Shown: piece after piece, positions 2,995 to 44,640 of the stretch
Position numbering within the stretch: position 1 is the first letter of the stretch
How the letters are laid out: each line of letters begins with the position of its first letter
From: Lunularia cruciata
Taxonomy: Eukaryota; Streptophyta; Marchantiopsida; Lunulariales; Lunulariaceae
DNA length: 64,000 nucleotides
NCBI GenBank assembly: GCA_948567375.1
Contig: OX419756.1
Location: forward strand, 54,884,333-54,948,332
Reading direction: 5' to 3'
Made by a program: the position numbers and the translations under genes
Notes under the pieces: model-generated
Databases searched by the model: none
Told to the model about the DNA's origin: nothing
What the model saw: only the letters and a program-made list of their open reading frames with translations

Positions 2995-3003
2995 ATCGCG
3001 CAC

Positions 3004-4700
3004 TAAGTTCCCGATGAATCACTATATTATATGGAACCAACAGGGCAAACAGATCGCTTTCTGAAGAAGAGTTTTGGGTCTAGAAAGTGAAGAGCTTGTT
3101 AATCCAAGAGATGTTGCATCTCTTCCTGAGCGGAAGAAGGCACGGACCAGATAGTATAATCAGCAGCAAAGATTGAATTTCAAGTGCCTCGGTGCTGTAA
3201 TTTGAGCTACCCAAGTGACGTAACGCACAGGTCAGTGTTCAAATGGAGCCTCCATCTACCTACCTACCATATCGGGCTGGAAGAAACACTACACGACATT
3301 CTCAGTGTCGAACGTACCCAAATGTTGGCCACAAAAACCGCTTAACATGCACGAGAATACTTGTGCTCGACACGATACTAAAGCCTTGTCTCAGACCTCC
3401 ACACTCAGGGGTACAGTAGCATACCTACAACCTCAGGATAAGCCTGAATTTGAGTAAGATGCTTCCTTCTCACACCACAGCTTCTCGTACCGATGACCAT
3501 TTGACTCCTACTGCTTCAGAAAAGACTTTACTTCAAAACGGTAGCGAACCGTATTCTTCTTCTATTTGTCTTCTGCTGACTATTAGTATCTACATTCCTT
3601 CCCCCCGAGAAGAATCATCACTACACTTAAGCTCCGACCGCCCTTGGATACTGTTGTCGCGATGAGAGGTAGAGTTGAGCCTACATAGGGCATCAAAGTC
3701 TCCTCGACGTACGAATATCACCTGCTCTTCTTGTTGTTGATATCGTCTTCCTGTGAGCTTTGGATCGTCTGAAGTAATGGAGGGCCAGTCAGATATGAAT
3801 TCTCGGAATACCAACACACAAAGCGAGAGGATCACGGTCGAGAAAGCATCTGTGTGGAGGTTTCTGGGTTTTTGGTGTACCCGAGGTTAGAAATGCCGCG
3901 TAGCTAAAGATAAACAGTGTAACCTTTCCACTGAAAATCTGTGATTATTACTTTTCTAATCAAATTAATTAGGCACCGGAAGATTTCAGATTCGCGAGGC
4001 TCTTTAGACATCAATCAAACAGATGCAAGATTTGAGGTAGCCAATTGTTCAGACATTTCAGAAGTCGGATCTTGGAATCATGCTTATCTGGATTTTCACA
4101 CCAGCTTCGATATCGATCCTTTTGGTCAACTTCTGCTCAACCTCTAGAGGGTCAATAAGTGGAAATTTCTTAGCATCCCCGAGAATGAGTCGACCTTTAT
4201 TATGAAATTGAGCCAGTATATATTACAAGTTGTCAGTGAGCTCAAGGTCAAGGAAAAGATCTAGTACACTCCTTTTGCAGATAAATTTGTCAGAACTACA
4301 ATCCTATACTCCGTGATATTAAGAACAGAAAAACTGTGTTCGAATGAGTTGCAACTTACTTAACTCTCAACTTCTACTGTCTATAACTGTACACAGCCAT
4401 CGACGACCAAGTGACTTGATATCGACTAAGGATTTTGGTGATACGTCTCCCGTAAAGCCGGACACCAGCGAGTTGATCGAACATGGACTGGACAGTTATT
4501 CGGCCTGTTAAGGTTAAAATATTTAACCGGAGATATGGATCTGCTAACCTCAAAAGGTTATAAAGCGAGGTGCTTGACAACGTTCACGTTCATCTCAAAA
4601 TGCGTGTAAAATCTTACACAACGATCAATTCCTGGAATGCTTGCTAAGCCCTTGTATATTCTTATCACTTATCTTATATCCTTAACACTTATCTTGCGAT
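3004..4700. other. Intergenic region, no gene recognised
   Basis: This lies between the unrecognised gene (ending upstream at 2994) and the 3' end of the ankyrin kinase gene (4742). It probably includes the promoter or leader of the former and the 3' flank of the latter. The short frames on both strands show no family motif, and no tRNA or repeat was seen. Confidence 0.4.
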
Positions 4701-9341: not shown

Positions 9342-9343
9342 CA

Positions 9344-9349
9344 TTACAT
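9344..9349 (-). promoter_or_regulatory. Start-stop upstream ORF (ATG-TAA) touching the kinase start
   Basis: On the minus strand the sequence reads gaATGTAATGATGGCC. A minimal ATG followed at once by TAA sits a few bases before the two candidate kinase start codons. Start-stop elements can stall or lower initiation in plants (known for a few transcripts). Whether it lies in the mature leader is not known here. Confidence 0.35.
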
Positions 9350-10560
9350 TCAATACTGTCAAATCACAAGTTTCGGAATGGATCAGATTGTTGATACTTA
9401 CACGCACAGGTACCCTGTAGACAATCAAACCGTCTGACGTAGTGAAAGTGGAATAATGAGATGGAGGAAGGACTAACAATATAATGAAATTATATCTGTA
9501 AAATAGATGGAATACTAATTCGTTCAAAGTGAGGGTTGTGCGGAATGAAATGCAAGATTGACCGGGATTAAACCGGGGACTTCGGACAACGCTTCAGCAC
9601 GGGCCCGACTTCCAGAATAAGCCAATTAAACTTAGTAACGGTTCCTATTGTAGCTTTCCTACATGTCCAAAGCACCAGCGTCACCCCGAGGAGAACGTTA
9701 AACCCCATCACATTGGCTACCATAAGACTAATCCAACCAGGTGATATTGTTTAATCACGTGCAAGAAAAAAAATTTGTCCAGTATCAAGTGCATCCCCAG
9801 TTGAAATATGTAAAGCGGAGTGAATTCATATCTCTCACATAGCGAGGTTAACTTATGTGTCGCCTGACAGTCTACAGTTAGCTCTAACAGCCTGGGTAGG
9901 TGATTTTAACTCCTATATACTCCATTATGTAGCCTCTCGAGTCCCACGTACGCATAGTAAAAAGAGAGAAGTAGCTGTTTTTGGCCATTCCAAAAGGTTA
10001 CCCTCTATGATAGACGCAAGCGAATCGTCTCCATACGGGTGGCCTCAAGTTGTCCAAATCAGCAGAAAGTTTTAGTTAACCAGCAGCGATGGACAACTTC
10101 GAACTACTCATAGGGAAAACGAGAGCAGAAGGCGTTCGAAGAACGAGGGATCCAGAACCCACTAAGTACATATGCAGTGCAGATGAAATATAAGCATGAA
10201 GGTGTGCAAATCGAAATGAATAGCAACTCAGGAAATGGAAATGAAGTGAAACTAACAATATGAAGGTGAGGCAAAGTAAAGACATGATTTAAACATCTCA
10301 TAAGGAATGAACACGTGCAGAGAACTAGTAAACTTCGTGTAACCACAAGCAAGATGCGACCGACTAAGCATCTGAAGTAGTCGACTAATTTGTTCTCGTT
10401 CTCTTGTTGAAATGGTGTCTTAAGTAAGTAACATTGGAAAGAGTATCTGAATTCCAGAAGAATTACCATGGAACAGAGAAATATCGAGTAAGACTAATAT
10501 ATAAAGCACTAGTTGAGGATGAGTGGAGTGGAGCGAAGCGTAAGAGGATTGGATATGAGG
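9345..10560. other. Intergenic region upstream of the kinase gene
   Basis: Probably holds the kinase promoter and 5' leader. A stretch at 9555-9620 vaguely resembles a minus-strand tRNA but does not fold convincingly. A segment of about 47 bp at 10123-10169 (gagagcagaaggcgttcgaa and on) is repeated with changes at 10565-10611, and its first bases recur near 16449. No protein-coding gene is supported. Confidence 0.35.
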
Positions 10561-14622: not shown

Positions 14623-17547
14623 TCAAAAAGAACCAGTGCTTCCTTGGTTTACAGAGATTGTGGATCCTTCTGATTTGATGAATGAAGCACCTAACTGGCC
14701 ACCCATACTTTGGAGGCCTCCAAATGTGCCTCGTTGAAGAAAGTCATTATGCGCTTGCTGCTGGGAAGACTGCTGCTGGAGTTGCTGCAATTGCTGGGCT
14801 GAGATTGCTCCTTGCCCGATCCCGAAAACGTGCCCTGATAGTCCGTTTAATTGCCCGGTGGCAACCTTCAAACGTTGTACTTCATCTCGCAGTGCCTCGT
14901 TCAGTGCTGTGTCATAAAATAAGGACAGCCAAATTATTGGGTATTGCTACATCAAACTGGTCACATCGTAGTCTAAGTACCATCCAACAACTGCAGAACT
15001 CTACAACAAGAGGATTTCCATCTCGGCTTTCCAATTCATCATGCTTGAAAATTAAGAAGCTGCAAATAGCGAACTGCGAAGCCTCTGATTCATTTCGTAC
15101 GTTCACCTCCAGATTCTTCAACTACATGTTCTTGGCCTATCATCAGGCTCCGACCGGAATTATTTTAGGCCTCAAAGTAACATCAAGTTCTCGGCATCTA
15201 GAGCTATGTTTCTAACTAGTACGAAGGCACTTACAGGAAAGTTGTTGTGACATACCATCACGAAGCTGAGCTTGTTGCTCCATTGCCTGCAAACGTAGCT
15301 TGAGTTCACTGTTTTCCGTCGTGAGGCCTGTGGTATCCCTCTGCAGGACATCAATTCCATGTCAGAACAGCATTTTCTCTCTTTCGCTTCCTCGTCGCAT
15401 ACTCCTCTGACCAAATTCCTGCCTTTATCTAGGAGCTTTGCTATTTGTCTTTGTCTATCTACTATGTTAGAGACAAGTGCCACATCGGAGAATAAGGGAC
15501 ATTCCAATCTCGCCAACAAGACAGAATTGACCCCGAGGCTAGATTGTTCAAGGGGGAGACCTGACCCTCATTTTCACTACGTTGCTCCTAGCTCGCACTT
15601 ACAGCAGCATAAGATTGCATAAGATTGTCCAACAAGTATCGCCACCCGTTGAATTGAATAAAGAGCTTCTCAGGTAATTTGGCGCTATCCTTCAGACTTC
15701 TAGGAGAAGACTAGTTTTGGAACCTACGAATAGGTCAACAGTAGTTGTCTCTCGAACTCAGGTTTTCAGACACATCTCCGATAATATAAGATAATATACC
15801 TTTGAACGTCCAAATAATACATTCTACCTCTAAAACTGCCACCCATAGTGAATTTCTTTGATGAACCTCCTCAATACACTCGTAAAAAAGTTTTTGCGCA
15901 AAGGAGGCAAGGCTTCAGAGAGGACAAAGGTTAAGTTAGTCATCAAACGGTTAAGCATAAAGAGCCAAACGGATGGTGCGAAAATTGTCTCACCTGAAGC
16001 ATGGTGAGCTGAGCAGAAAGAGTAGTTGCCTCAGTTTGCAAAGTCTGCACTTTCCGCTCGAGCTCTGATATGTATCGCATCTTCCGTTCCTTTGATCGTG
16101 CGGCAGACTGTCTATTTGCCAGAATCCTATCAGACGGTTGCAAAGGTCAGTCAGATGGAAATGTCCTGCTCTGGATGTGAATAGTAACCATGGAGAGAGT
16201 TGATCTAGAAGACCTGTTCCAGAAATTCCTCCAGCGAAGGCAAAAGGGAAGAAGAGGGTAGAAGTGTACGGGAATGTAGCAAAACTGCCAATGAAAGGCA
16301 AAGCCCTAATGAATTACAGCATATCAAACGATCCGTGTAAACCATAGTCAGGTGCTCCTGACTAGCACCTGACTAGTAAACAAACACATGGAAGTTTCAA
16401 ACTAGATCCACTAAGAGAGATTCTTGCACATTATACATATTCGGACATGAGAGCAGAAGCCGTATTGCACATTATGCATAGTTGTTCTCTTTCAACATCA
16501 ATAGCATTAGGGTCATCTCAATTTTGGACTTTCTGCAGTTCGAGAAATATCAAGATAAGTAGCTCATTTCCTTGATAGACTACTAGATATACATGACGCT
16601 CGGTTAGGCGACAGTTAAAGTAAAATCACGAGGAGAGCATTCGGCGCAGACCTTTTGGCACGCTTTGGATCAATAAGTGCAATATCTGCCAGTTTTGCAG
16701 AATTCATAACCTTCTTAGCATCCGCACCATCCAGCTCGGCTGCCAGAAGATCATGCTTGAATGAAGTCGAACCATCCATTGAATTGCTATGCTGATGTCG
16801 TGCCCTGCGGCCATCCGATGGGAAGCCACCGCTTCCACCACTCGTACTACCTCGGCCACTGTTGAATCCAGCCAGTACTCCATCCACGGACAAGCTCCTA
16901 GAGTGATGAGGAGGAGGAGGCGTGGACCCACTATCTGCTGCAGAACTCTTCGGACCAGGCATTGGAGCGGAGGTAGCACTAAACGAGTTTATTTTCTCCA
17001 TGTCAATGTACATGGAGAACAGATCTTCAGCCGCATCATCTGAGAGAGCAGGCATTTCAGAACCATGCATACCAAGATCACGTTCAAATGATACATCGTC
17101 GGGAAGTCGGAAGGCAATCTCGGACTGAGCACGCCTGTGACCCCTGCGGCGTGGTGGTGTGTCGGGCATCTGGTTAACATCAGTGCTGTAATTGTTTGCA
17201 GGGCTTGGATTTCTAGAGCTAGAAGGACCTGGACCTGTCACACTAGGAGGTCCTGGCGAGGTCACTTGATCTTGCATGGAGACCTCTATGGATAGGGAGT
17301 TGGCAGTTCTCATGGATGATTCTGATACGGAAGGTGATGCCTCCCTCTTGACCGTAAACGCATGTGTCGGTGAGGGGTAGCCTACATATCTTGACTGATG
17401 AAGTTGGGACTGAGAGGGATGAGGGGGGTGGCTGCTGTGAGTGGTAGTATTCCCGTTTTGAGCTGAATTTTTAGCGGCACTAGTCGCGGCAAAATCCGAC
17501 TGTAATCGCTCTACAAATGCCTCGTATCCATCCCCGAGGCCGTCCAT
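14623..17547 (-). CDS. Group I bZIP transcription factor (VIP1/RSG/PosF21 type), four coding exons
   Basis: Exons on the minus strand: 17547-16652, 16126-15994, 15340-15256 and 14906-14623. The GT/AG joins keep frame and give 465 residues. The basic region ([20 protein letters not shown], from about residue 303) runs straight into a leucine zipper, then [20 protein letters not shown] and [19 protein letters not shown], the signature of plant group I bZIPs. The Gln-rich C terminus is also typical. The N-terminal half is Ser/Pro-rich with HRRAQS (137-142) and HSRSLS (215-220), both fitting HxRxxS, and a variant RHQHSNS; in this family such sites bind 14-3-3 proteins and hold the factor in the cytoplasm until dephosphorylation (known for VIP1 and RSG). 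ATG at 17547 is chosen because a splice acceptor lies at 17584-17585 and the likely upstream exon has an in-frame stop. It should act in the nucleus as a dimer. Confidence 0.92.
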
Positions 17548-17583
17548 CCCCGCACTGAGTTTCTCGCAGCTTTCCAGCAGGTT

Positions 17584-18484
17584 CTGAAAAATGCTCACCC
17601 TGCTCCTGACAAGTTAATCGTCTGAACTCTCTAACCTCCGTAAACTAAATGCAGCCCAAGCGTCACCCCTTTGATTGGTGAGAGTTGTAGACACAAGCTG
17701 GCCGACGCATCTACTTCAACCTCTAAAACCTCTGTATGAATGAACCTTGCTGAGTAAGAACTTCCTGTTTCATTACCTAGTACCGCAGCTACTGTAGCTG
17801 CCACCAAAACGAACTATCGGAATTAAGTCCCATCACAAAATACGTTTCCACCGTCACAACCTGTCAAGCCACCAAATGTCCTACAGCTGCTGTATATACG
17901 TTCGATAAGGGACCTTGTTTCGGTGCTGGTCTTACTTCCTCTTCACTGATCAGAACACCCCTGGATTCTAGCAAGATGAAACGTTGAATACTTGTTAGAG
18001 GACATAAGAATAACCGAACAAGCCAACCACAGGCAGACAAGTTTTCCTCTTCTCAGATGCTGAACCACCGGAGAAAGTCGGAACTGCTAAGAAAGGAAAA
18101 GTATAGCAACTTAAGTTTTAAAACTGAGTGACGCAAAGGTGATGCACGCATACATAAAAAGATATACATTACACATAGACATTAAAGAGACAACTTAGTC
18201 CTTCTTGCTTTCTGAGGTGAAAGAAGGAGAAGACTCACAACAGCTGAAAACACTGCAGACCATACGCCAATTAACTAATCCCGAAGCCTAAGAAACTGTT
18301 GTACTCATGCAGCTGCCCCCAATTGATTCAAATGCTTGTATCTAGTGGGAGGGATAAATTTTCTAAACATCCGTCTGTCTATCAAAAGCTTGACACATGC
18401 TGCGTATAGCCTAAGTTCAGGACTAGTCGCCGGCGTAAACATGGAGAAGTCTGACTGATGCGTTCTAACCGAAGAAAAACTCAC
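17584..18484 (-). other. Probable 5'-UTR intron of the bZIP gene
   Basis: A GTGAGT donor on the minus strand at 18484 and a pyrimidine-rich TTTTTCAG acceptor at 17584 would bound an intron of about 900 bp just upstream of the first coding exon. An in-frame TAG in the exon before the donor supports a non-coding leader. There is no transcript evidence. Confidence 0.4.
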
Positions 18485-26600: not shown

Positions 26601-27653
26601 GATTGTGTCTTGACAATCCACAACAGAATATCATCTCCAAACTAGAGTTTAGATCCACACTTCAATCATTAGGTTTGAGAAAGGAGGCAATCAACGCATT
26701 GATCACCTTCTAAGGTCTAGTAGATATTAACCAACTTCCTATCCACAAGAATGATCTTATAAGTACATGTTTAAGTCGCCATCACTTTGGAGACCTCCTT
26801 CTTGACTTAGCAAAATAAGCCAAGCCAAACAACTATATATTTTTTTTATTTTTTTTTTCTTGGCATTGATCTGAAATCTCAACATCCATATGTCTTGCTC
26901 GACGGTAATGCATAGACTAGTGGTATTCTTAAAGTGTGTCTTAAATTAGATCCTGCCTATAATCAAATTGTTAATACTAAAATCCTTATAACAAGTATAT
27001 CTATTTATTTTAGAGAGCTAAAAAATACTACAAAAGTGCATTTACCTATTATTAAAAATAATAATAAAAACAATAAATAGAGATGGTCTTCATTGCAAAC
27101 CGTTATATCATTTAGTGAATTTCATCTATTATATTACAATCATCATATATGCTATCCTTAAGGTTGAAGAAATAATATTAACTAATAATATTATAGCTAA
27201 TGTGAACCTCTAAAGAGACATATTGGTGAACTCCGAAATTTTTCCGTGATGGATATGCTAATTATATATTCCTGACTTTTTGCAAGGACATTGTTTAAAC
27301 CTTTCATCCAGTTGAGATATCATGGTTCTTAGTTTTTCTCCGTTCTTGGCTTCTAAGATTATCCAGCCCTCTTGACATATTGCAAAAGCTCAATGAGTAG
27401 TGTTGAAACAAGTATTATCATTAGCTTTGCCAACTTGTGTTTGCTTGCTTGCCACTTTCATTGAGTCTTTCTTGAATAGAAGTATTCTTATCCTTCAAGT
27501 TTTTCACAATAAAAGTTTCAAATCTTTGATTGAATCATGACCATAAACACTATTTGCTTCATTGGTTATATCGTTGAGACTCAATTTGCTGCCTTACCTG
27601 CACGCAAGATGCTCAATTTCCTAAACGGGCTTAGAAACGTTAGAAGGGTCTGA

Positions 27654-28104
27654 TGTCACGCCATTTGTAGTTCCGCATCTAGATGCTCGGACACTGGAGT
27701 TCCAGTGATGGTAGTTAGAGTTATTCTAGCTGTTTCTCAGGGACTACTTTCCGACGGTTAGATTTCGTGTTCGGGGTACTGACTTCACGGTGGGGCCCAC
27801 CGTCACTTTGCACCGTTTGCACCGTCGAGTGTGCCGTCAGCGGGACCGTTAGGGTTTCAGGGCTAGCTCGAGTCCAGGGGGTATAGTTTCGAAGTGAGCT
27901 CCAGAGAGCTCACTTCCCTGATGTTGAGCCTTCGAGTTCCTGGCTATGGTGGACAGAGGCCGGCGAGCGTCACCTGGATTCTCTATGCTTGAGTGGGTGT
28001 GGCTTGACTGTAATCAGTGCCCAGTTGTTGGCAGTTTATAGAGTGACAGATCAAGTACTGATCTGAGTTGAGTTGAGTTGAAAGTGTTAAGCAATCTGAT
28101 TACA
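27654..28104 (+). repeat. 5' LTR segment (B part only)
   Basis: It runs from tgtcacgccatttg to ctgattaca and matches 36944-37391 at about 99.5%. The part that precedes it in the 3' LTR (A, about 107 bp, starting tgtggcac) is absent here. The leader follows directly, beginning tcagagaagtgaag. A clear primer-binding site could not be assigned, although atcagag overlaps the initiator-tRNA-Met motif. Confidence 0.85.
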
Positions 28105-28750
28105 TCAGAGAAGTGAAGTCAGGGGGAAATCGAGTGCAGGAACGTTGAGTGTTGGTGGTATCTCCAAGCTCGGTGGATCGTGGTAGCTCGATTCAGGTTC
28201 TATGTTTCCCTAGTGTGCAGAAGCTCGTGTAGTTGATGCAAATTTGGCAGTTAGGCGGACGGTGTGCGGAAGCGCTGGCCAAATTTCGAGCAAAGAAGGA
28301 GCAATTTTCGAGCAGTGTTGTGATTTTGAGCTCAAGAGGTGAAGGCAGGACCAATTTGCTGCGAGTTGGGCTCAGAAAGTGAAATTGAAGGTGGAGTTGG
28401 AAAGCTCTTCTCATGAAATTGTGATTTGGAAAAACCCGTTTTGTCAATTTGGCTCGAGTGGAAAGTTAGCGGGGGATTTGGCGAACATCCATCTTTAGGG
28501 TTTACGTCAGATTTTACGTCAGATTTTGGGCCAGAATTGGAGGAGTTTCGCTGTTTGGCCAGATTTGGAGAAGTTTCGCTAGTTTGGAGGAGTTTCGCCA
28601 ATTTTGAGGCTTCGAGGCATAGGGCTGTGGGCTATGAGAGGCTACGAAGGGCTAGAAGGGCCAGCAAGCCAGCTTGCTGGCGTGAGGCTAGCTAGTTTAG
28701 TGTAGATCTTGGTCATTGGTTGGCAAAATATGCCTTTCTTGCTAGATTGT

Positions 28751-28816
28751 GCGCAACAGGGTTTGACCCCTAGATCTCTTGTTCCTAGACTGGTGCCCTA
28801 GCCAACTGGTCCACCC
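28751..28816 (-). repeat. tRNA-like SINE head inside the retrotransposon leader
   Basis: On the minus strand the sequence begins gtggaccagttggctagggc, which fits the A box of the tRNA promoter, then gaacaagagatct, then ggggtcaaaccctg, which fits the B box. Plant SINEs begin with such a tRNA-derived head. No cloverleaf acceptor stem is evident, so it is not a working tRNA gene. The SINE's tail would run towards lower coordinates and its limits are not clear. Confidence 0.5.
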
Positions 28817-29317
28817 TCACTTGTTGTCATAGTGACTGTGCCACTGTTATCTATACACATGTAGCTTTGGCTAGGAGAGGCAGTTTGATCCCATTCTTGG
28901 TGATCCTGGTAGCTTAGGACTTAGATACTAACTACTCTTATGTCAAATGCCAAATGGTGGCAGAGTCAGTCCCGTGTTGTGTTATGAGATGGAGGGTTTT
29001 CGTTTAGATTTCTTGTGATTGGATCCCCTCCATTCTCTGCTTCCTGTTTGTGCACCACGTTTGTGTGAGGTGCCTTGACTTTTGAGCGTTGGTGCTCTGG
29101 TGTGCTCTCGGTGGTGAGGCTGGAGTGATGACCAGTCAGACTACCTTTGTTTCTCTCCGGTGAGGCAGGAAGTGATGACCTGCAGACCGTGAGAGTGCGT
29201 GTTATGATGGCAGGTTACAGGTTGCCCTTCCCCTAGTGTAGTTATCTCGGTTAGAGTTACATTAGTGGGTGGTGTCTAGTTGGTGTTGGCACTTGGTGGG
29301 GCACTTGCAGTTGCAAC

Positions 29318-32137
29318 TTGCGGTTGCAGTTGGTGGTTCGGGTTTGTTATTGCAGTTACGTGGTCACGACGGAGTTCTTTGGAGATTCCAGAGGAGTTAG
29401 CCCTGCAGTACGTAGTGGCTTTACTCGGAGTGGTGCTCGGTATCAGCCTGTATCTCAGGTCCCAGTGAGGGAGGAGATTGACTCTGAGTTGGAGTTCGAC
29501 ACAGGAGCTGATTCAGTTGAGAGTGCACTTGGTGTGTCCGCACCGTTGTTGTGGGATATGGACGAGATTTATGGGGCCTCCAAAGGCCCTAGGTGTTACT
29601 CTGGTACAGTGGGTACTATTGAGTTGGATGATTTCATCCAGGAGTTCGATAGTTGGTGTGATTTGCAGCAGATGCGGAACCCGACTTTGTTCACACCCTT
29701 CATGGCATGGAAGGGGTTGTTTCAGCACTTGGAGGGTCCACCGATGGACGACTACCATGAGTTCAGGAGAGCTCATTTGGAGGAGATTGAGTTATGGAGA
29801 CAGTATTGGTCTCCACACTATGTCTCCATCACTTCAGGTTCGGTGGCCAGGAGTAGGTCGGCTGTACCTACGAGTTCTAGCTCGAGTAGTGTTGGTGGAG
29901 CTAGTGGAGGTGCACTAGCTGGAGATAGTGCTACTACGAGTGGAGGTACCACTGCAGGAGGTGGTGTGGTACCGGGGTTTAACCCCATGGTGGAGTTCTT
30001 CCTATGTTTGAGGCAGAACTACCAGGGAGTGCGGGCTGACAAGCTGAGGAGCTTGCAGGAGTTCCAGCGGAAGGCTGGAGAGAGCCTACGCGAGGCATAC
30101 ACTCGCATGAGGCGGCTGATCAGTTTCACTCAGGGAGTTACTGAGGCCCAGGCAGTCCAGTTTTGGTATGGGATACTGGACAGGGAGTTGCGACGTAGAG
30201 TTCGTGATGCTACGTTGTTGCAGGCTACTTCGCCCACTTTGGCAGTAGTCTTTGGTTTGGCTGAGCGTATTGAGCTCAACATGGTGGAGGAGAGAGTGGT
30301 GACAGCTGGATCTGGTAGAAAGACCTCATCCACGGTTGTGACTTCTTCTAGAGTGCAGCAGAGTGCACCACGCCCAGTTGGTTTTCGAGGACAGGGTGGA
30401 CAGCCCAGATCCTATGGAGCGAGTGGAGGGCCTAGTGGAGTTAGACCCTTACCCTCATTTTCGGGTCAGCAGCAGCCAGTGAGTGGTGGTGTTGCTTGTT
30501 GGACTTGTGGTGGACCTCACCATAGGAGAGAGTGTACTCAGGGCAGCGGACCTGATACCTCTGGTGCATCACAGCCAGCACAGAGGCAGTGTGAGCATTG
30601 CCACAGATTTGGTCACACTAGTGACCGGTGTTTTGACCTACACCCGGAGTTACGGAGTGGTAGGGCTGCTATGGCAGGTAGTAGAGGAGCTCCAGTTCAT
30701 GGAGGACGAGGTGGTAGAGGTGGTGGTAGAGGATCTACACCTAGTAGGGGTGCAGTACCTGCCCTTACTTCTGACACAGCTATGGCTACTCGGATTGAGC
30801 AGTTGGAGCAGAGATTGGCTAGTATGGCTATTGCTCATAGGAGATCAGATTCAGGTGCTGAGGCTTCCACCTCATATGCTGGTGATAGAGATGCTTTGGA
30901 CTCCATGTGCGGAGCAGCACAGGTGGATGCATCTACAGCAGTGACTAGGAGTGCAGTACGTGCTCCAGAGCCTAGAGGAGCATCAGTGGAGTTGGACCCA
31001 CAGAGAGGAGAGGTTGGGAGACAGGTCAGACTTCCCCAGTCTTTCACGCTATCTGAGGCATTGCAGACGACATCCATGGTTCCTAGACGTCCCAGTGCAG
31101 GTGTGGTAGGTGGTGATGGAGTACCTGATGGAGTACCTGCTAGTCAGCCACCTGCTACTACACAGACTGAGTCTAGCATGATGTTGGGGGCGGCTCAGCT
31201 GATTATGCGGCATCCTTTATTTTCAGCCAATGACATGTTTACATTGGGAGTTGACCCAGCCCCAGTGTTCCGGTTGGCTGCCACGTTGTGTGAGAGTAGG
31301 GATGGTGCAGTTCCTACTACTAGAGCAGAGGTGGTTGGTAGTGGAGCTGACTTGGTTGAGGAGCATGGGATCCGTTCAGCGACCAGTGGTTTATGGCAGG
31401 CAGCAGCGGCTAGACTGGAGGAGTTGCCAGCTAGACCGGCCTTTGAGAGAGCGCGGTTTACACCTGGTGTTGTCCTATTGGATAACCAGAGGGGGATCTT
31501 TCGTTTGGTGGGACCTTCAGGGAAGGTCTATACACCACAGAGAGTCTTGTTAGACTCTGGTGCGCAGCCCCTTATGTTGGGGAAGGCTGCAGTTGTTGGT
31601 CTGGAGTTACGGAAGACCGATGTGGAGAGGTGTCCATTTCAGATCCAGACATCTCTAGGTGGTGGTTCGACACAGTACATCACACGTGGGGAGCTTGAGG
31701 TCCAGGTTCAGCCTGGTCATCCGACTGATAGCTCAGTGGTGAGAGCTCAGGCTATTGCGACGATAGCTGAGTCATATGATGTGCTAGTTGGGGGAGCAGT
31801 GTTATACCCTATGGGTTTCAGTATTGACTATTGGGAGGAGACAGCCTCTTATAGACCTGGTTGGCAGTCTGGTGAGGGACGGGTATGTCGCCTACCAGTA
31901 CGCTTTAGTAGTGGCAGTCTTGGCTCACTACAGTCCGGGACCATGGCAGCATCAGTTTTGGCTTTCAGCGATGCAGTTACTTGGCCTGGTGACTTGTTGG
32001 AGGGGAACGCCCATGCAGAGGATACTCCAGTACCAGAGGAGATCACTCGGCTATGGAGTACGAGTGGGATTGTTCCATCCACCTTGGATGTTCCATTGTG
32101 GAGTTCAGAGGAGGCATTGCAGCAGCATGCAGATTAG
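29318..32137 (+). CDS. Retrotransposon gag-protease region
   Basis: A long open frame of about 939 codons. The first 320 residues hold a retrotransposon gag-type domain (for example YQGVRADKLRSLQEFQRKAG and EAQAVQFWYGILDRELRRRV). Two zinc knuckles follow: CWTCGGPHHRREC, a slightly unusual spacing, and CEHCHRFGHTSDRC, canonical CX2CX4HX4C. Next come an RGG-rich stretch (GGRGGRGGGRG), a short coiled coil (IEQLEQRLASMA) and a low-complexity linker. Near the end, RVLLDSGAQPLMLG is an aspartic protease active-site motif. Gag would package element RNA and the protease would process the polyprotein (family knowledge). The true start codon within the leader is uncertain. Confidence 0.85.
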   Translation: MRLQLVVRVCYCSYVVTTEFFGDSRGVSPAVRSGFTRSGARYQPVSQVPVREEIDSELEFDTGADSVESALGVSAPLLWDMDEIYGASKGPRCYSGTVGTIELDDFIQEFDSWCDLQQMRNPTLFTPFMAWKGLFQHLEGPPMDDYHEFRRAHLEEIELWRQYWSPHYVSITSGSVARSRSAVPTSSSSSSVGGASGGALAGDSATTSGGTTAGGGVVPGFNPMVEFFLCLRQNYQGVRADKLRSLQEFQRKAGESLREAYTRMRRLISFTQGVTEAQAVQFWYGILDRELRRRVRDATLLQATSPTLAVVFGLAERIELNMVEERVVTAGSGRKTSSTVVTSSRVQQSAPRPVGFRGQGGQPRSYGASGGPSGVRPLPSFSGQQQPVSGGVACWTCGGPHHRRECTQGSGPDTSGASQPAQRQCEHCHRFGHTSDRCFDLHPELRSGRAAMAGSRGAPVHGGRGGRGGGRGSTPSRGAVPALTSDTAMATRIEQLEQRLASMAIAHRRSDSGAEASTSYAGDRDALDSMCGAAQVDASTAVTRSAVRAPEPRGASVELDPQRGEVGRQVRLPQSFTLSEALQTTSMVPRRPSAGVVGGDGVPDGVPASQPPATTQTESSMMLGAAQLIMRHPLFSANDMFTLGVDPAPVFRLAATLCESRDGAVPTTRAEVVGSGADLVEEHGIRSATSGLWQAAAARLEELPARPAFERARFTPGVVLLDNQRGIFRLVGPSGKVYTPQRVLLDSGAQPLMLGKAAVVGLELRKTDVERCPFQIQTSLGGGSTQYITRGELEVQVQPGHPTDSSVVRAQAIATIAESYDVLVGGAVLYPMGFSIDYWEETASYRPGWQSGEGRVCRLPVRFSSGSLGSLQSGTMAASVLAFSDAVTWPGDLLEGNAHAEDTPVPEEITRLWSTSGIVPSTLDVPLWSSEEALQQHAD

Positions 32138-32249
32138 TTGGTGCAGCAGGCTTGGAGTGGAGCCTTCGTACCATCAGGGGATGAGTGTGAGGATGAGCCT
32201 CCAGAGGCGATTGCTTTGACACCTCTGGATACCACACTCATTGCTTGGC

Positions 32250-33250
32250 AGTACCCAGTAGAGGGGATATGCCTATTGGAGTTGTTTGGTGGGATCAGCA
32301 CCGGACTAGTTGCGGTGTTACAGGCGGGTATCCAAGTACAGAGGTACTTGTATGTAGAGAGAGATGAGACTGCTAGGCGAGTCTCTCTACATCATGTGGC
32401 ACACTTGGCCTATCGGTATCCAGAGTTATTACCGATGTCAACAGTCAGAGGTTACCAGAAGGCCTTACCAAGAGACATTTCCTTACTGGGGGCGCATGAC
32501 CTAGAGAGACATGGGCCTGTTCACTTGGTGATTTCTGGATGGCCATGTCAGGGACATACATGTGCGGGCCGCGGTTTGGGTCTTCAGGATCCTCGTTCTG
32601 GTGTGTTTTGGGAGATGTTACGGATACTACGACATCTCCAGTTCATCAGTCTGTTTCTCCAGCTTACCTTTTGGAGAACGTTCCATTGATGGGTGATTCT
32701 CGCACTAGAGTGGTGGCGAGTACACATCAGGTCCATTCTTGGATGGGACCTGCTGTATTGTTAGATGCAGCCAGAGTGGGATCATGGGCTCATCGTCTTT
32801 GTCTTTGGTGGACAAACCTCTTACCCAAAGAGGTTCTACAGCGTGCTTATGATGGGATTCAGCGACTGGACCACATTCTTGTTGATGATATCTTGGATGT
32901 TGGGCGTCAGTCTCAGACAGTGGTAGTGGCTGATAGGTCACCCATGGCAGTGGTGAACCTAGTTGGACAGCCTAGAGCTGCATTTCCCACACTCATGAGT
33001 TTCCCAGGCTCTCATGCTTTTCGAGAGGGAGGACCTGGACTTGTTTGGGACTCACAGTTACAGCAATTGGTGGAGCCCAATGCTGATGAGAGAGAGCGGG
33101 CGATGGGTTTTCGCACTGGTATTACCGCTGTTCCAGCAGTGTCAGAGGCATCCAGGCGTCAGGTGTTAGGTCAGGCTATGGACCTGAACTGTTTGACCTG
33201 GATTGTGAGCCTTGGTTTGGCAGAGCAGCGTAGGATGCGCTTGATAGGCA
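32250..33250 (+). pseudogene. Retrotransposon-borne cytosine-5 DNA methyltransferase domain
   Basis: This lies between the protease and the reverse transcriptase. Cytosine-5 methyltransferase motifs appear in the expected order: motif I (LLELFGGISTGLVAVLQAGI) for S-adenosylmethionine binding, motif IV with the catalytic cysteine (ISGWPCQGHTCAGRGLGLQD, then PRSGVFWEMLRIL), motif VI (LLENVP), a motif VIII-like stretch (AARVGSWAHRLCLWWTN) and a motif X-like end (SEASRRQVLGQAMDLN). The pattern is closer to DNMT3/DRM-like or phage-type enzymes than to MET1 or CMT, because no BAH or chromodomain is seen. Such enzymes move a methyl group from S-adenosylmethionine to cytosine C5. Retrotransposons with captured methyltransferases have been reported in some algae and dinoflagellates (recalled, not looked up). 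This copy belongs to an interrupted element and is treated as a fossil. Confidence 0.85.
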
Positions 33251-33689
33251 TCACCACTCGGACACTTGTGAGCCCTGTGCCTATCGAGACGATTCAGGCA
33301 CATGCTGGGGGGCGATGGACCGAGTGGACATGGTATTCTTGGGACACATCCAGTAGCTACTAGGGAGAGTGGTCTACTTGGAGTCCATCCAGGTGAGCGT
33401 GGGCTACTTGGATTACACCCTTGGTCCACATGGGATGCAGCCAGAGGATGTATGGAGCTTGCAGCCAGAGTGGAGGGAGTTTTTCACACAGAGGTTGGGA
33501 CCTCTAGTGGTCGGGAGCATGACACTATTGCTCCCAAGGGCCCAGTGTAGCAGCCAGTCAGTACGTCTTCCACTCCTACTACAGTTACAGAGGATACTTG
33601 GGAGCCAGATCTTGGACCCAAGCTTACTGGAGAGGAAAGACGGAGGGTTTGGAGGTTCTTGAGGAGTCACACGAGTTGTTTTGCCTTCA

Positions 33690-35090
33690 GTATGAAGGAT
33701 TTGGGTGCTCTGAAGGGACCTAGTATACGGATTGAGCTGACTAGCGACACACCTGTTTTCCGACGTCCTTATCGATATAGTGAGATGGAGAGGACATTGA
33801 TTCAGAGCCGGAGTAGTGACCTTTTTGAGGCTGGTTTGGTGGAGATTTCACATGGAGAGTATGCATCAGCGACAGTGATACCAGCCAAGAAGGATATGCA
33901 TGGCAACTATACAGATAGGCGGATGTGTGGAGATTACCGTCCTATCAACTGACAGACTAGGGCTGATCGATATGCCATGCCTACACCGGAAGAGATTTTT
34001 GATGCGATTGGGCATGCAAAGGTCTTCAGTACTTTGGATCTTCGAGCGGGATATCATCAGTTGCCAATCAGGGAGGAAGATAAGTCCAAGACAACATTTT
34101 GGGCTATTGATCCTCACGGCAAGGATGTGTTATATCAGTGGAGATTCTTACCATTTGGGTTGAAGAATGCTCCTGCTGAGTTCCAGAGGGTCATGGATAG
34201 GATCCTAGCTGGACTGGATTTTGCTCGGTGCTATATTGATGACATTTTGGTGTATAGCACTACTGTGGAGGAGCATGAGAGACAGTTGTTGGAGGTGTTT
34301 GAGAGGTTGAGATCTCATGGACTCAAATTACATCCTGGGAAGTGTAGGTTCTTCCATGAGCAGGTTGAGTATTTGGGTCACACTATCTACCCCGGAGGAC
34401 TTGGTGTTCAACAGACCAAGGTGGAGGCTATTGCACGTATTCCTCGGCCTACGGATGTGAGCAGAGTGCGAGCATTCCTTGGGTTGGCAAACTTCTATCG
34501 CCGCTATGTTAGAGGATTTAGTGCCATTGCCAAGGCCTTGACGAAGCTGACCAAGCTTACACAGGAGTGGTGTTGGGGAGATGAGCAGGAGAGAGCTTTT
34601 GTAGAGCTCAAGGAGAGGTTGACATCTGCTCCTATTTTGAGGAGACCGATCAGGGGACGACCATTTCAGGTTCACACTGATTGGAGTATGTTGGGGCTTG
34701 GAGCGGTGCTCACCCAGCATGATGAGGAGGAGAAGGAGTTTGTGGTGGCCTATGTTAGTCGCTCCAACAATTCAGCGGAGGCGAAGTATAATTCATATGA
34801 GGGAGAGTGCTTGGCAGCAGTTTGGGCAGTAGCACATTTCCGATGTTACCTATTTGGTAACCCCTTCACTCTCATCACTGATCATCAGCCACTGAAGTGG
34901 TTGATGGAGTCCGACAAGCTTTCAGGGAAGCTTGCACGATGGGCTCTGATTTTACAGGAGTATGATTTCACGGTTGTTCACAGACCTGGAGTGGTGAACC
35001 GTGATGCAGATGGGTTGAGTAGAAACCCATGTCCCAGCCAGCAGGATCAGACCGGAGCATGTTGGCATGGTGAGACAGATGAGGAGATGG
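33690..35090 (+). pseudogene. Retrotransposon reverse transcriptase - RNase H region
   Basis: Ty3/gypsy RT blocks are visible: STLDLRAGYHQLPI, WRFLPFGLKNAPAEFQRVMD and the catalytic CYIDDILVYS (YxDD), then EYLGHTIYPGG and VRAFLGLANFYRRYVRGFS of the connection. RNase H follows: PFQVHTDWSMLGLGAVLTQ, YEGECLAAVWAVAHFRCYL and LITDHQPLKWLM, ending in VVHRPGVVNRDADGLSR. The RT copies element RNA into DNA and RNase H removes the RNA strand. The region belongs to the interrupted element at 27654-37496. Confidence 0.93.
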
Positions 35091-35219
35091 TGCCAGGTTG
35101 GCATGCATAAGCCTTTCTGTGTATATTTGCAGAGACATTGGTGGTATCTCTCTTAGCGCATATAGGAGGAGTTATTGAGGTCACAGATCCAGAGAGTGAA
35201 GATATTGGTACAGTTCAGC

Positions 35220-36665
35220 GAGACATTCATTCATGATGATGTCTTAGTGATGGACTATCTTCGTACTGGTGTTGTGGGTGGCACAGTTGGGGCCAAGGAG
35301 AGAGACCGTGTTCTTCAGCGAGCCAGACGGTTCAGATTGGAGGGTAGACACCTTTTGCGTGTATGGGAGGATGGTAGAGTGCGAGTAGTACCACTTCCAT
35401 CACAGAGACCACAGTTGGTCCGTCATGCTCATGAGGAGCTAGGACATTTTGGAGTAAAGCGTACATATAGCTTACTCCAGAGTCATTATTGGTGGCGCGG
35501 TATGCAGACCGAGGTACAGCAGTTTGTTGCCAGATGTGTGGTTTGTGACCGAGTTAGAGCATCATTCAATGCTCCTACACCACAGTTGCACCCATTACCT
35601 ATCATGGGATTGGGTTACCGTTGGAGTTTGGACTTCGCCGGACCTTTACCGCTGACTGTGAGACATCATCGGTATGTTTTGGTGATGGTGGAGCACTTCT
35701 CCAAGTGGATTGAGTTGGTGGCACTTCCTGACAAGTCTAGTGAAGGGACAGCTTACTCGTTCCTGGATCGAGTTCTTAGTCATTTTGGTGCACCAGCTGA
35801 GGTTTTGACTGATCAGGGTACAGAGTTCTTGGGAGAGTTTCAGGTCTTGTGTGACAAGGCTTTGATTGATCATCGTACTACATCCCGAGATCACCCTGAG
35901 GCAGATGGCTTAGCAGAGAGAGTGGTTTAGACGGTGAAGAGAGGATTGCGAAAGTATGGTTTGCAGAGAGGCCACTTGGGAGATTGGGATCTCCAGTTAC
36001 CTTGGTTGGCCATGGGCTATCGGTTCAGCCGACAAGCCTCCTCAGCATCCTTCTCTCCATACTTTCTACTCCATGGACGAGATCCAGATTTACCTGCAGC
36101 TATTCGTCGAGATGCTACTGTAGTTTTGGACTTGGATGACCCCTATGTATGGATGAGCGCATGTTCTCAACGGGCAGAGATCTTTCGGAGAGTGATGCCG
36201 ATGGCCTTTGAGAACTTGGCGATTGCTCAGCATAGAGATACTTTACGCTATGCTACCATTCGAGGAGGAGGTTATAGACCCTCGATCCGTCGATTTCATC
36301 CAGGCGACTATGTATATCTACAGCAGACAACACCGACGACACTTGATGTTTCTACAGGCCGCACTATCTTGAGAGTGCGCGAGGTTTTGCCATCTGGAGT
36401 CCTTGTGTTAGAAGGACGTGATGGTGTTGTTTGGAAGGATCATGTGCGCAATTGTGCGCCATGCCACCTTCCAAACATTGATGGTACTATGGACCCAAGC
36501 TTGGCACTTGTACGTGCAGGCTTGAGGTGTATGTTATGTGGCTCTTCTGGTGGAGCTACTACTATGTTAGTGTGTGATAGCTGTTCGAGAGGATGGCATA
36601 TGGCATGTATGACTCCTCCCCTCATGGTGGTTCCTCAGGGACAGTGGTTATGTCCTAGATGTATT
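35220..36665 (+). pseudogene. Retrotransposon integrase with C-terminal PHD finger
   Basis: The integrase zinc-binding region (HEELGHFGVKRTYSLLQSHY, then CVVCDRV) is followed by the catalytic core (RWSLDFAGPLP, VLTDQGTEF, then a DHPEADGLAERV stretch), and then an SH3-like tail (FHPGDYVYLQQ, VWKDHVRNC). The last 50 or so residues form a PHD finger with full Cys4-His-Cys3 spacing (CMLC, CDSC, WHMAC, WLCPRC). Many Ty3/gypsy integrases end in a chromodomain that guides insertion to marked chromatin. Here a PHD finger, a domain that usually reads the histone H3 tail, takes that place. The element is interrupted and treated as a fossil. Confidence 0.9.
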
Positions 36666-36836
36666 TGACCTATAGCTAGTCATTCTTTATATGGTATAGA
36701 TTGCAGACAGGCGACTAACGATGGGGCTCCATAGCACCCGGCCTCCTGATCTTTGCCCATTAGAGGGTATACCATATACTTAGAGTAGATGGCTATCTGG
36801 AGTTAGAGGGACCTAACCGCCAGCTAGGGGGGCGAT

Positions 36837-37496
36837 TGTGGCACTTTAGAGTCTATGTATGACTTATGTGTGAGTTGTGCTTTTATAGTGTATGATGTTG
36901 ACAGCGATGTATGTTGTGTAGCGATGTATATACGCACGATAGCTGTCACGCCATTTGTAGTTCCGCATCTAGATGCTCGGACACTGGAGTTCCAGTGATG
37001 GTAGTTAGAGTTATTCTAGCTGTTTCTCAGGGACTACTTTCCGACGGTTAGATTTCGTGTTCGGGTACTGACTTCACGGTGGGGCCCACCGTCACTTTGC
37101 ACCGTTTGCACCGTCGAGTGTGCCGTCAGCGGGACCGTTAGGGTTTCAGGGCTAGCTCGAGTCCAGGGGGTATAGTTTCGAAGTGAGCTCCAGAGAGCTC
37201 ACTTCTCTGATGTTGAGCCTTCGAGTTCCTGGCTATGGTGGACAGAGGCCGGCGAGCGTCACCTGGATTCTCTATGCTTGAGTGGGTGTGGCTTGACTGT
37301 AATCAGTGCCCAGTTGTTGGCAGTTTATAGAGTGACAGATCAAGTACTGATCTGAGTTGAGTTGAGTTGAAAGTGTTAAGCAATCTGATTATTGTGGCAC
37401 TTTAGAGTCTATGTATGCTTATGTGTGAGTTGTGCTTTTATAGTGTATGATGTTGACAGCGATGTATGTTGTGTAGCGATGTATATACGCACGACA
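36837..37496 (+). repeat. 3' LTR region in A-B-A' order
   Basis: Segment A (about 36837-36942, starting tgtggcacttta) follows the purine tract. Segment B (36944-37391) equals the 5' segment. Segment A' (37392-37496, ending cgcacgaca) repeats A almost exactly. An LTR defined by the purine tract would be A+B, so A' would be the start of a second LTR joined to the end of the first. Confidence 0.8.
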
Positions 37497-37500
37497 CTGA

Positions 37501-42594: not shown

Positions 42595-44208
42595 TTATTG
42601 AACAGCTTGATGGGCCTCCAAAACTGTGACCGCTGAACCTACAACCATTTGGCCCCCCACAAAATGTTGTCTGCAAACCGGCATATATACATCCGCTCCA
42701 CCTATAATTTCTGTTTTGATATCCAACGTTTTCCGGAAGCTAAAAATCGCAGGTCTTCCACAAATTTCACACCGGGATGACAACTTTACAACACTGTCAG
42801 CAACACGAACCAAGTCTACTGTCGACCCAAACTTGCGTCTGTGGGAAGTACACCAATAGAACAGAACCTCATTAGTATAAATAACATAGGAAAAAACCAA
42901 AAGAGAACTGATGGTGCTTACTAATGACAAGGAGAAAAGTTGAATAACGAATGAAAGTCCCGTGCAGACAAGAGTTTAACTAGGATGGCCCGGTGATGGT
43001 GCTCTTTCAGACGTCGTACTTGGATACAGAAACAAATGCCAAATGGACGAGTATTACCGTAGAAAGTCTCCATCTAGGCCCGCGGCAATCACAGTCTTGC
43101 CCTCGTAATCGGCCGCATTCAGGCAGAATTCGTAAAGATCTGTGAAAAACTGTGCTTCATCGATCCCTATGACATCAAACTGCTCCAAGAGTCCCACAAC
43201 ATATATGATCAAACGTGATGGTAAAGTAAGGCAATTAAAACAAGGTTCAATAGATGTCTTAAGTAGAGAAATAATTTGGGTAACGCAATGCCAGAAAGTT
43301 CAAGAATGAAGAACAGTACCTTCAGTCTCTGACTGAGTGCATACATGCTCTATCACTCGTCACATTAGAAAACTAACGTAATTCGTGACAAAAAATGAAG
43401 AAGTTAAGTACAATTTGATTTAAGTTAAGCAATATGGTACCTCTTTGTAAAGCCTCTCTCCAACTTGGGCTTTGAACGTTGCCAAATCAGGGACGGCAAA
43501 ACATGGCATTTGAAGCCCATCGTGTGTAACGACTGCAGACAAACCATACCTCGAGTCTTTGTCAGACTTCACCAGCGCCACTCTCCTGCGAACCTTAACA
43601 AGGTGAACTGAGGCGATGGCATTGACATTTCCGCGCCAATTGTAGATACAACGCTCTCAAACAAAGATGAATCACTTAAACTGATCTCACCTGCCCGCAC
43701 TAGCTTCCTCTCGAGCTCGTTTCAAGAGAGCTGTGCTTTTGCCAGCAAACATAGGTCCAAGAATCAAGTGAATGCTCCCATGGCTGTCATGATAAGGCTC
43801 AGCTTCAACAGCGGCCGGGACTTCGCCAACGTCATTCGCCAACAAACTCAATCCATCGCTCTCGGTACATTTCTTCTCCTTCATACCTCTTGAAGCTCTC
43901 TTTCTACCACTCTTACTACTCAAAAACCTCAACTGTGGGCAACGAACCCAACTTGCTGAAGAATTGGCACCATTTGCCAAACAACCTTGATTATTCTCCT
44001 CTAAGCTTCTTCCCGTTCTACTCTCCAACCGTGGAACAAAAACACTCAATGATTTTGTACTGCTGCTGCTCCTGATTCTCAGCTGAAGAATCCTGGTAAC
44101 CAATTCGGTTGAAGCAGAACGCACTCCTAGTCGTCCTGTCTTGACATAAAACAGACCAGACACCCCTGGAACCCACATAGTCCTGGCGAAGGCTGAGGAT
44201 GTCCCCAT
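42595..44208 (-). CDS. Thymidine kinase, TK1 type, with organelle-targeting leader; four exons
   Basis: Exons on the minus strand: 44208-43691, 43585-43441, 43179-43058 and 42838-42595. The joins keep frame with GT/AG sites and give 342 residues. The enzyme transfers phosphate from ATP to thymidine in the dTTP salvage pathway. Visible parts are the P-loop GPMFAGKST (residues 151-159), then [20 protein letters not shown], the DEAQFF motif (228-233) with the likely catalytic Glu229, and a structural zinc site formed by CEIC (285-288) and CRQH (317-320), then the lasso-type C terminus. About 140 residues precede the kinase core. The first 60 are rich in Ser, Arg and hydrophobic residues with no acidic cluster, as in plastid or mitochondrial transit peptides, which plant TK1 proteins can carry. 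ATG at 44208 is used; the codon before it is GTG. All key residues look intact. Confidence 0.93.
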
Positions 44209-44640
44209 CACAAAAGCCTTTTACGACTAAAGTCGAAAACGTACGTACTGTACTCTTCAGTCTCTCAGTAACTCAGTTCGTGGCTATCTCGCAAACACTT
44301 ACTTACCAAGGCTGCCGAAGAGCAGCAGTAGCAGGAGAACCCCTTCAATAAACGAACAGTACAAGTCAAAATTCGATCACGAATATGGCTTCTTCTGACT
44401 CCTCGAGGGTCGTGCATCTACCAGGCTGTGAAGAAATACAGCACAAGCGCTTTACCTTATCTCAAAGAAACCTTTCAGCAAAAGTACATTCTCTAGCTCC
44501 TAATACGATTACAGGGAGAATTCCCAGTCAGAAATCGGAACCCACAAACACAGTGCCCCCCCACCCCAACTCACTCTGCCCCTCCACCAAATCACCGACC
44601 ATCTCCTCGGCTATCTACTGATACCTCAGCCAAAAAGGCC
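44209..44640. promoter_or_regulatory. Upstream region of the thymidine kinase gene
   Basis: Likely promoter and 5' leader of the minus-strand thymidine kinase. A small palindrome, cgactaaagtcg, sits at about 44225-44236. The plus-strand frame at 44385-44621 shows no domain. Confidence 0.35.

What the first reader, a model, noticed from the sequence alone, without database searches (positions are those of the whole stretch)
32250..33250. A Ty3/gypsy retrotransposon that carries a cytosine-5 DNA methyltransferase
Seen: motifs I, IV (with PCQ), VI, VIII-like and X-like in the correct order, placed between the protease and the reverse transcriptase and in the same orientation as gag and pol. Known: cytosine-5 methyltransferases share this motif order, and capture by retrotransposons has been reported in a few algae and dinoflagellates (recalled, not looked up). 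Inference: the element may methylate its own or other copies, either to hide from host defence or to limit itself. A land-plant case next to a PHD-bearing integrase would be a notable addition.
Basis: partly seen in the sequence, partly recalled or inferred. Interest (0 to 1): 0.92.

Follow-up and report, generated by a model that had tools for sequence, protein, structure and literature searches.

The report
Liverwort jumping gene carrying DNA methyltransferase
A very abundant self-copying DNA element in a liverwort genome carries its own enzyme of the kind that puts methyl marks on DNA, which turns the usual host-silences-transposon story around and makes it testable in a land plant.

Summary
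The window holds a 9,843-bp Ty3/gypsy-type retrotransposon (27654-37496, 4-bp target duplication) with a DNMT3-type cytosine-5 methyltransferase (MTase) between protease and reverse transcriptase. It is a family trait: the host genome has 1,746 exact catalytic-motif hits (control 0), and none of 56 RT-selected places on one contig cleanly lacks the MTase. In 21 copies MTase dN/dS is 0.43, like gag-PR and RT. The host is a Marchantia-like liverwort, probably Lunularia cruciata; relatives occur in Marchantia polymorpha and Sphagnum, and MTase relatives in Calypogeia and Closterium. The kind is known (KnitGypsy-Dnmt3 of the alga Klebsormidium, 2018); ten paper searches showed no land-plant report. 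New details: the MTase lies on the Gag-protease side of a UAG in a readthrough-like context (19 of 21 copies), so it is probably made at Gag level; priming looks self-primed; the repeats are permuted (A-coding-B-A-B), which suggests a circular intermediate. Most likely role: methylating the element's own new cDNA (inferred, not shown). This copy is broken by stops and frame changes.

The parts
27650..27653 (.). target site duplication CTGA, left
   Evidence: a 4-bp duplication in 9 of 9 copies with enough sequence held at both ends
27654..28102 (+). repeat A1 (terminal, begins TG)
27910..27923 (+). stretch complementary to the primer-binding site (13 of 14 in this copy's A1, 14 of 14 in its A2); predicted start of the RNA
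28103..28116 (+). primer-binding site of the self-priming kind, right after A1 (inferred)
   Evidence: perfect 14/14 match to own A1 in 15 of 18 copies with the place held
29558..33550 (+). ORF1: gag, protease, MTase, ending at the UAG; broken in this copy by a TAG and two frame changes
   Evidence: four relatives' proteins end at the matching place
30497..30631 (+). two zinc knuckles of gag
   Evidence: sequence, placed (motif recognised from general knowledge)
31544..31816 (+). aspartic protease signature (LLDSGAQ ... YDVLVGG)
   Evidence: sequence, placed (motif recognised from general knowledge; no Pfam match)
32138..33363 (+). DNMT3-type cytosine-5 MTase: motif I 32276-32308, IV 32534-32560, VI 32668-32694, VIII 32776-32820 (altered), X 33154-33186; two frames in this copy
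33548..33556 (+). UAG CAG CCA between ORF1 and ORF2, matches the CARYYA readthrough context (recalled)
   Evidence: TAG in 21 of 21 copies, CARYYA in 19 of 21
33551..36668 (+). ORF2: RT, RNase H, integrase, PHD finger; broken by TGA 33950, a frame change 35110/35166 and TAG 35928
33953..35107 (+). main part of RT and RNase H
   Evidence: RVT_1 1.1e-30, RT_RNaseH 1.7e-36
35166..35927 (+). integrase zinc finger and core
   Evidence: Integrase_H2C2 6e-19, rve 1.4e-13
36528..36662 (+). PHD finger at the end of ORF2
   Evidence: PF00628 5.3e-11; the piece holding it is found in 20 of 20 fetched copies
36822..36835 (+). polypurine-tract-like stretch right before B1
   Evidence: sequence; seen in all 18 rows, with small changes
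36836..36939 (+). repeat B1
36944..37391 (+). repeat A2
37392..37496 (+). repeat B2 with terminal CA
37497..37500 (.). target site duplication CTGA, right

Best explanation
A member of a large, recently active family of Ty3/gypsy-type retrotransposons in a complex thalloid liverwort that stably carries a DNMT3-type cytosine-5 MTase in its polyprotein. ORF1 (Gag-protease-MTase) ends at a UAG in a readthrough-like context; ORF2 (RT-RNase H-integrase-PHD) would be made by occasional readthrough. The MTase would thus be made about as often as Gag and packed into the particle with RT and integrase, where it most likely methylates the element's own new cDNA. Reverse transcription looks self-primed. 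Shown: gene order, conservation, selection, repeat order, duplications, UAG context, complementarity. Inferred: readthrough, self-priming, particle packing, methylation of cDNA and its benefit.
For: Family: 1,746 exact catalytic-motif hits, reversed-pattern control 0; the 150 protein matches scored, out of 10,115 first-look candidates, are all 93-99% identical to the window's MTase piece 1 (window included). Same architecture in 20 of 20 fetched copies, gag incomplete in two. MTase constraint over 21 copies: dN/dS 0.43 (codon bootstrap 0.32-0.58) against gag-PR 0.40, RT-RH 0.39, INT-PHD 0.53; MTase variants shared by copies 0.42, singletons 0.81. Against M. polymorpha, MTase piece 1 is 47-67% identical (15 proteins), piece 2 57-68% (14), gag-PR 44-56% (15, main match), RT-RH 69 and 76% (the 2 long matches). 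Motifs in 21 copies: VI 21, X 21, IV 20, I 19, VIII 16. UAG context. DNMT3-type. Precedent: DNMT3 of SymbioDIRS elements methylates CG de novo in yeast (PMC5890265, passage).
Against: No methylome, expression or enzyme data here. The published yeast assay gave no activity for the Klebsormidium gypsy MTase, called inconclusive by its authors. The window copy is young (A1 and A2 differ at 1 of 448 aligned sites, plus one indel) yet broken, and its altered motif VIII recurs in two more decayed copies, which suggests that MTase-defective copies can move, presumably helped in trans. Only 2 of 21 copies have ORF1 open and 1 of 21 ORF2. CpG depletion is not specific: 0.40-0.57 in the coding parts against 0.73 and 0.34 in the flanks. 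The copies were selected by the MTase.
Confidence: 0.72

Rival explanations
1. The MTase acts on the host rather than on the cDNA: released into the nucleus it methylates host chromatin or competing elements, or helps silence its own older copies and so limits damage.
For: DNMT3-type enzymes are de novo methylases (established knowledge); production at Gag level would make spill-over likely; de Mendoza et al. discuss such effects (PMC5890265, Discussion read).
Against: Position inside the particle polyprotein favours action on the cDNA; no host methylome was available here.
Confidence: 0.2
2. The domain no longer works as a methylase and is kept as a structural or nucleic-acid-binding part of Gag.
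For: Motif VIII is altered in 5 of 21 copies including this one; the Klebsormidium enzyme gave no activity in yeast, inconclusively.
Against: Catalytic PCQ, ENV and motif X are kept in 20, 21 and 21 of 21 copies and WPCQ in 63 of 68 relatives that cover it; dN/dS is about as low as for RT.
Confidence: 0.1
3. Chance resemblance or a private capture: one copy picked up a host MTase gene.
For: None found.
Against: 1,746 motif hits; 0 of 56 RT-selected places cleanly lack it; the host's own DNMT3-type gene lies in two open frames apart, as if with introns, and aligns to the element's enzyme by BLASTP over only 41 residues at 41% (by profile, 103 columns at 34%).
Confidence: 0.01

Closest known systems
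KnitGypsy-Dnmt3 of Klebsormidium nitens (de Mendoza et al. 2018, PMC5890265)
   Same: Gypsy domains, unrearranged DNMT3-type MTase in the polyprotein, repeats arranged as in DIRS elements (given there as A-coding-B-A-B), purifying selection on the MTase.
   Different: Host is a land plant; 1,746 motif hits here, while the paper says K. nitens has fewer copies of such elements than Symbiodinium; the MTase lies upstream of a UAG on the Gag side (the paper says Pol ORF; its figures were not held); no K. nitens sequence was available, so common descent is untested.
SymbioDIRS-Dnmt3 and SymbioLINE-Dnmt of dinoflagellates (same paper)
   Same: Retrotransposon with a cytosine MTase; SymbioDIRS uses a DNMT3-type enzyme, active on CG in yeast.
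   Different: Other retrotransposon classes (tyrosine recombinase DIRS; LINE); here a DDE-type integrase domain and 4-bp target duplications.
Tf1/sushi-type self-priming LTR retrotransposons (recalled)
   Same: Primer-binding site complementary to the element's own RNA near its 5' end.
   Different: No MTase, ordinary LTR order, as far as recalled.
Elements and viruses with UAG readthrough between gag and pol or in the TMV replicase (recalled)
   Same: UAG with CARYYA after it; one frame on both sides.
   Different: Here an MTase is the last domain before the stop.

Membership tests
Ty3/gypsy LTR retrotransposon | gag, protease, RT, RNase H, integrase in that order | tested here: met
   (gag and protease by sequence signature, no Pfam match)
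Ty3/gypsy LTR retrotransposon | DDE-type integrase with short target duplication and TG...CA ends | tested here: met
   rve match; 4-bp duplication in 9 of 9 copies with enough sequence held at both ends
Ty3/gypsy LTR retrotransposon | identical complete LTR at both ends | tested here: not met
   A at the left, A+B at the right, B also before A2; so described as gypsy-type with permuted repeats
Ty3/gypsy LTR retrotransposon | place in an RT tree of known clades | not tested
   no reference RT set was built
DIRS retrotransposon | tyrosine recombinase instead of DDE integrase | tested here: not met
   rve integrase present; no tyrosine recombinase among the seven stretches scanned
DIRS retrotransposon | split direct repeats A-coding-B-A-B | tested here: met
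   18 of 21 copies, window included, show all four repeats (one with a shortened A1); L015, L023 and L026 lack some of them in the stretch held
DNMT3 family | unrearranged motif order I-IV-VI-VIII-X | tested here: met
DNMT3 family | closest to DNMT3 among solved MTases | tested here: met
   DNMT3A 1e-19, DRM 5e-8, bacterial enzymes and DNMT2 about 1e-6 to 1e-5
DNMT3 family | tree position within DNMT3 | not tested
   the tree has only one DNMT3 row as outgroup; native plant DNMT3s were not gathered
KnitGypsy-Dnmt3 kind | gypsy element with DNMT3-type MTase and DIRS-like repeats | tested here: met
KnitGypsy-Dnmt3 kind | common descent with the K. nitens element | not testable with these tools
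   no protein named as K. nitens among the hits
active cytosine-5 MTase | 5mC activity | not testable with these tools
   needs an assay

The most novel reading that the evidence does not exclude
A gypsy-type family whose DNA is integrated by a DDE integrase from a two-LTR circle, cut at a site inside the repeat, and whose Gag-level DNMT3-type MTase marks the cDNA or circle in the particle before integration. Support: reverse-transcription signals (PPT-like stretch before B1, self-primer site after A1) define a B-A repeat, while the target duplications define ends at A and B. The A2/B2 junction differs in 5 of 31 copies: twice by five extra letters equal to the first five of the primer site, three times by one extra letter, which the PPT side could supply but a plain one-base insertion explains as well.
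Probability: 0.27. Interest if true: 0.88.

Novelty: new member of a known kind. Interest (0 to 1): 0.7.

Why it matters
DNA methylation is a main weapon of plants against transposons, so a transposon family that keeps its own de novo type methylase under selection, in a land-plant lineage with a genetic model (Marchantia polymorpha has relatives), makes the question of why it does so testable. If the host is Lunularia cruciata, whose nearly doubled genome is ascribed mostly to Ty3/gypsy bursts (PMC9985172, passages), this family may be part of that burst. The permuted repeats also raise the question of how a DDE integrase handles such DNA.

Tried and rejected
Viral contigs as a source of DNA relatives: three scans found none. 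Rfam (gathering thresholds) and tRNA scans of the window: nothing. Deamination as the cause of this copy's decay: at positions conserved in relatives the single-step changes were C>T 8, G>A 23, T>C 9, A>G 9, so only a G>A excess, mainly in gag; not pursued. CpG depletion as a trace of self-methylation: not specific, the flanks vary as much. The idea that the permuted repeats are one odd insertion: rejected, they recur. Structure prediction could not be run, so no fold comparison was made. The estimate of 3% of the genome (1,746 x 9.84 kb = 17 Mb) is arithmetic, assumes full length, and is not measured. On checking, the junction count was corrected to 26 exact of 31 and the reading of three one-letter variants weakened; the odds of the novel case were lowered from 0.30 to 0.27 for that.

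Full report
WHAT WAS CHECKED. The stretch lies in a retrotransposon on the + strand. Pfam finds DNA_methylase in 32138-32686, RT and RNase H in 33953-35107, integrase in 35166-35927 and a PHD finger in 35931-36665; gag-PR, the second MTase piece and the first RT piece give no Pfam match at E 0.01. Zinc knuckles, protease signature and MTase motifs were recognised by eye and placed. The MTase is of DNMT3 type: a profile of 12 rows reaches DNMT3A at 1.1e-19, against DRM 5e-8 and bacterial enzymes and DNMT2 at about 1e-6 to 1e-5. Its motif order is unrearranged, unlike DRM (order in DRM from general knowledge). Piece 2 alone has no MTase match in the PDB.

HOST. A bZIP exon in the window (16615-17613, minus) is 95% identical over 91% of its length to M. 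polymorpha VIP1, 88% to Riccia fluitans, 81% to Riccia sorocarpa and 80% to Calypogeia fissa. The assembly has 565,766,749 bases in 74 contigs; a paper gives 565.6 Mbp for Lunularia cruciata (PMC12885004, passage).

RELATIVES ELSEWHERE. One search with MTase piece 1: 66 proteins of 257 candidates at E <= 0.001, among them Calypogeia fissa (75% over 69% of the query) and Closterium sp. NIES-54 (43% over 67%); no genomic context is given, and most are unnamed. Search 2: 18 of 201, of which 15 are M. polymorpha, one Sphagnum fallax and two unnamed. M. polymorpha has gag-PR-MTase in one model (P0070), and Sphagnum has gag-PR-MTase-RT-integrase in one model. One unnamed protein, P0084, has the MTase after RNase H, a different order. 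Of 68 proteins covering motif IV, 63 have WPCQ. In a tree of 73 rows (71 relatives, the window and one DNMT3A; 13 of the 84 relatives were too short and dropped) the 14 M. polymorpha rows form one clade (100/99) and 44 rows, 43 unnamed and Sphagnum, another (99/97); the window lies outside both. The bootstrap had not settled. I take this as families of old standing that mostly follow the host; horizontal transfer is not excluded.

COPIES IN THE SAME GENOME. The pattern for GWPCQGH occurs 874 + 872 = 1,746 times, the reversed pattern 0 times; the first 100 places were listed. The RT pattern NAPAEFQRVMD occurs 432 + 432 = 864 times, reversed 0. On the first 29 Mb of contig C1, where both lists reach, 37 of 56 RT places have the exact MTase motif upstream at about 1.6 kb (one at 2.1 kb); their MTase was not looked at further. 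The other 19 were fetched: 17 hold parts of both MTase pieces, with changes, indels or insertions, and 2 (L041, L045) only the MTase's C-terminal end. In the other direction 37 of 100 MTase places had the exact RT motif; the longer RT pattern is also missing in 6 of 21 known copies. Twenty 10-kb stretches, picked by hand down the list of 123 PF00145 rows with the top eight left out, and so selected by the MTase, all show gag-PR, MTase, RT, RNase H, integrase and PHD in this order; gag is incomplete in L015 and L023, where another element lies beside.

SELECTION. Over 21 copies dN/dS is MTase 0.43 (codon bootstrap 0.32-0.58), gag-PR 0.40 (0.32-0.49), RT-RH 0.39 (0.28-0.53), INT-PHD 0.53 (0.39-0.72). 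Variants shared by copies give 0.42 in the MTase, singletons 0.81. By piece, the first RT stretch is less constrained (0.88), MTase pieces 0.48 and 0.40. Pairs are not independent, and the bootstrap is over codons only. ORF1 is open in 2 of 21 and ORF2 in 1 of 21 copies.

THE STOP BETWEEN ORF1 AND ORF2. In the copies ORF1 (gag-PR-MTase) and ORF2 (RT-RH-INT-PHD) share one frame and are parted by one TAG (from the positions). It is TAG in 21 of 21 copies, followed by CARYYA in 19 of 21 (17 CAGCCA, 1 CAGTCA, 1 CAGCTA; exceptions CAGCTT and TAGCCA). CARYYA after UAG is a known readthrough context (recalled). From base composition the chance at a given stop is about 0.001 (my arithmetic; six other stops of this copy, printed, lack it). 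In the whole window the 9-mer occurs 3 times on both strands, about what chance gives, so the conserved place, not the 9-mer, is the evidence. The M. polymorpha proteins P0070, P0071 and P0075, and P0068, end at the matching place; their DNA was not seen. So the MTase is on the Gag side. That it is made at Gag level is inferred.

REPEATS AND PRIMING. Order A1-coding-B1-A2-B2: A1 27654-28102, B1 36836-36939, A2 36944-37391, B2 37392-37494 plus CA. The left A lacks B; the 4-bp duplications flank A1 and B2 (9 of 9 copies with enough sequence held at both ends). The Fig. 4 legend of PMC5890265 says that the K. nitens element has the repeat structure of a DIRS element, given there as A-coding-B-A-B. 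The 14 letters after A1 are complementary to A position 257, perfect in 15 of 18 copies; the first 10 of them are matched in 18 of 20,000 shuffles of A2. A PPT-like stretch stands right before B1. These signals define a B-A repeat for reverse transcription, whereas integration used the ends of A and B. A two-LTR circle opened at the B/A border would give the observed order. The A2/B2 junction is exact in 26 of 31 copies with the place held (16 of 18 rows; 10 of 13, where 7 of 20 stretches did not hold it). Of the other five, two carry CATCA, the first five letters of the primer site, and three one extra letter (G twice, A once), which the PPT side could supply but a plain insertion explains as well; the recurring types could be inherited. 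So this is suggestive only, and a linear route is not excluded. A1 and A2 differ by a median 2.23% in 17 copies, 0.22% in the window.

FUNCTION. Most likely: the MTase methylates new element DNA in the particle, perhaps to pass as host DNA. This follows the published suggestion (PMC5890265, Discussion read) and the place in the polyprotein; nothing here shows activity. The published assay found activity for SymbioDIRS enzymes and none, inconclusively, for the K. nitens one. The host has its own DNMT3-type gene (L001; DNMT3 best in the PDB for its first piece) and a DRM (L002; DRM2 at 1.6e-103). The element's enzyme is distant from the former (BLASTP 41% over 41 residues; profile 34% over 103 columns; the second piece weak), so it was probably not lately taken from this host.

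LITERATURE. The listings, and passages of ten papers opened, show no report of MTase-bearing retrotransposons in liverworts or mosses; PMC12344493 speaks of streptophytes and dinoflagellates, citing the 2018 paper, and names Copia and DIRS where the 2018 paper says Gypsy (passage). PMC5784723 counts five MTases of three classes in M. polymorpha, none DNMT3 (passage). Of PMC5890265 I read the abstract, sections 9 and 11 and passages; figures were not held and supplements were not open to me. A report in a subscription journal may exist.

VERDICT. A real, conserved and abundant feature; a land-plant member of a kind reported in 2018, with new detail on expression, priming and repeat order.

Noticed in passing
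window 27654-37496: Strong strand asymmetry: + strand G 0.306, T 0.276, C 0.200, A 0.218, with third codon positions rich in G and T; cause unknown.
   Followed up: partly
P0084 (1240 aa, unnamed source): A related element protein with the MTase after RNase H instead of before RT; 38% (MTase piece 1) and 43% (RT-RH) identical; a second architecture.
   Followed up: partly
P0066 (Closterium sp. NIES-54), P0046, P0065: Divergent MTase relatives, one from a zygnematophyte alga, hinting that the lineage is older than land plants.
   Followed up: no
window 32776-32820; L013, L015, L026, L027: Motif VIII is altered in 5 of 21 copies, in a closely similar way in three of them; shared ancestry or repeated decay not resolved.
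   Followed up: no
L040: A clearly more divergent copy (65-86% in its gag-PR matches) that still holds MTase parts, a sign of subfamilies.
   Followed up: no
window 56001-58000: Extreme GC skew (-0.447) with repetitive-looking open frames.
   Followed up: no
L001, L002: Likely native DNMT3-type gene (in pieces, as if with introns) and native DRM of the host genome.
   Followed up: partly
window 1069-3018 (-), 8853-9593 (-), 43687-44220 (-): Host exons: a long unknown protein, an ankyrin-repeat protein and a thymidine-kinase-like exon (recognised by eye).
   Followed up: no
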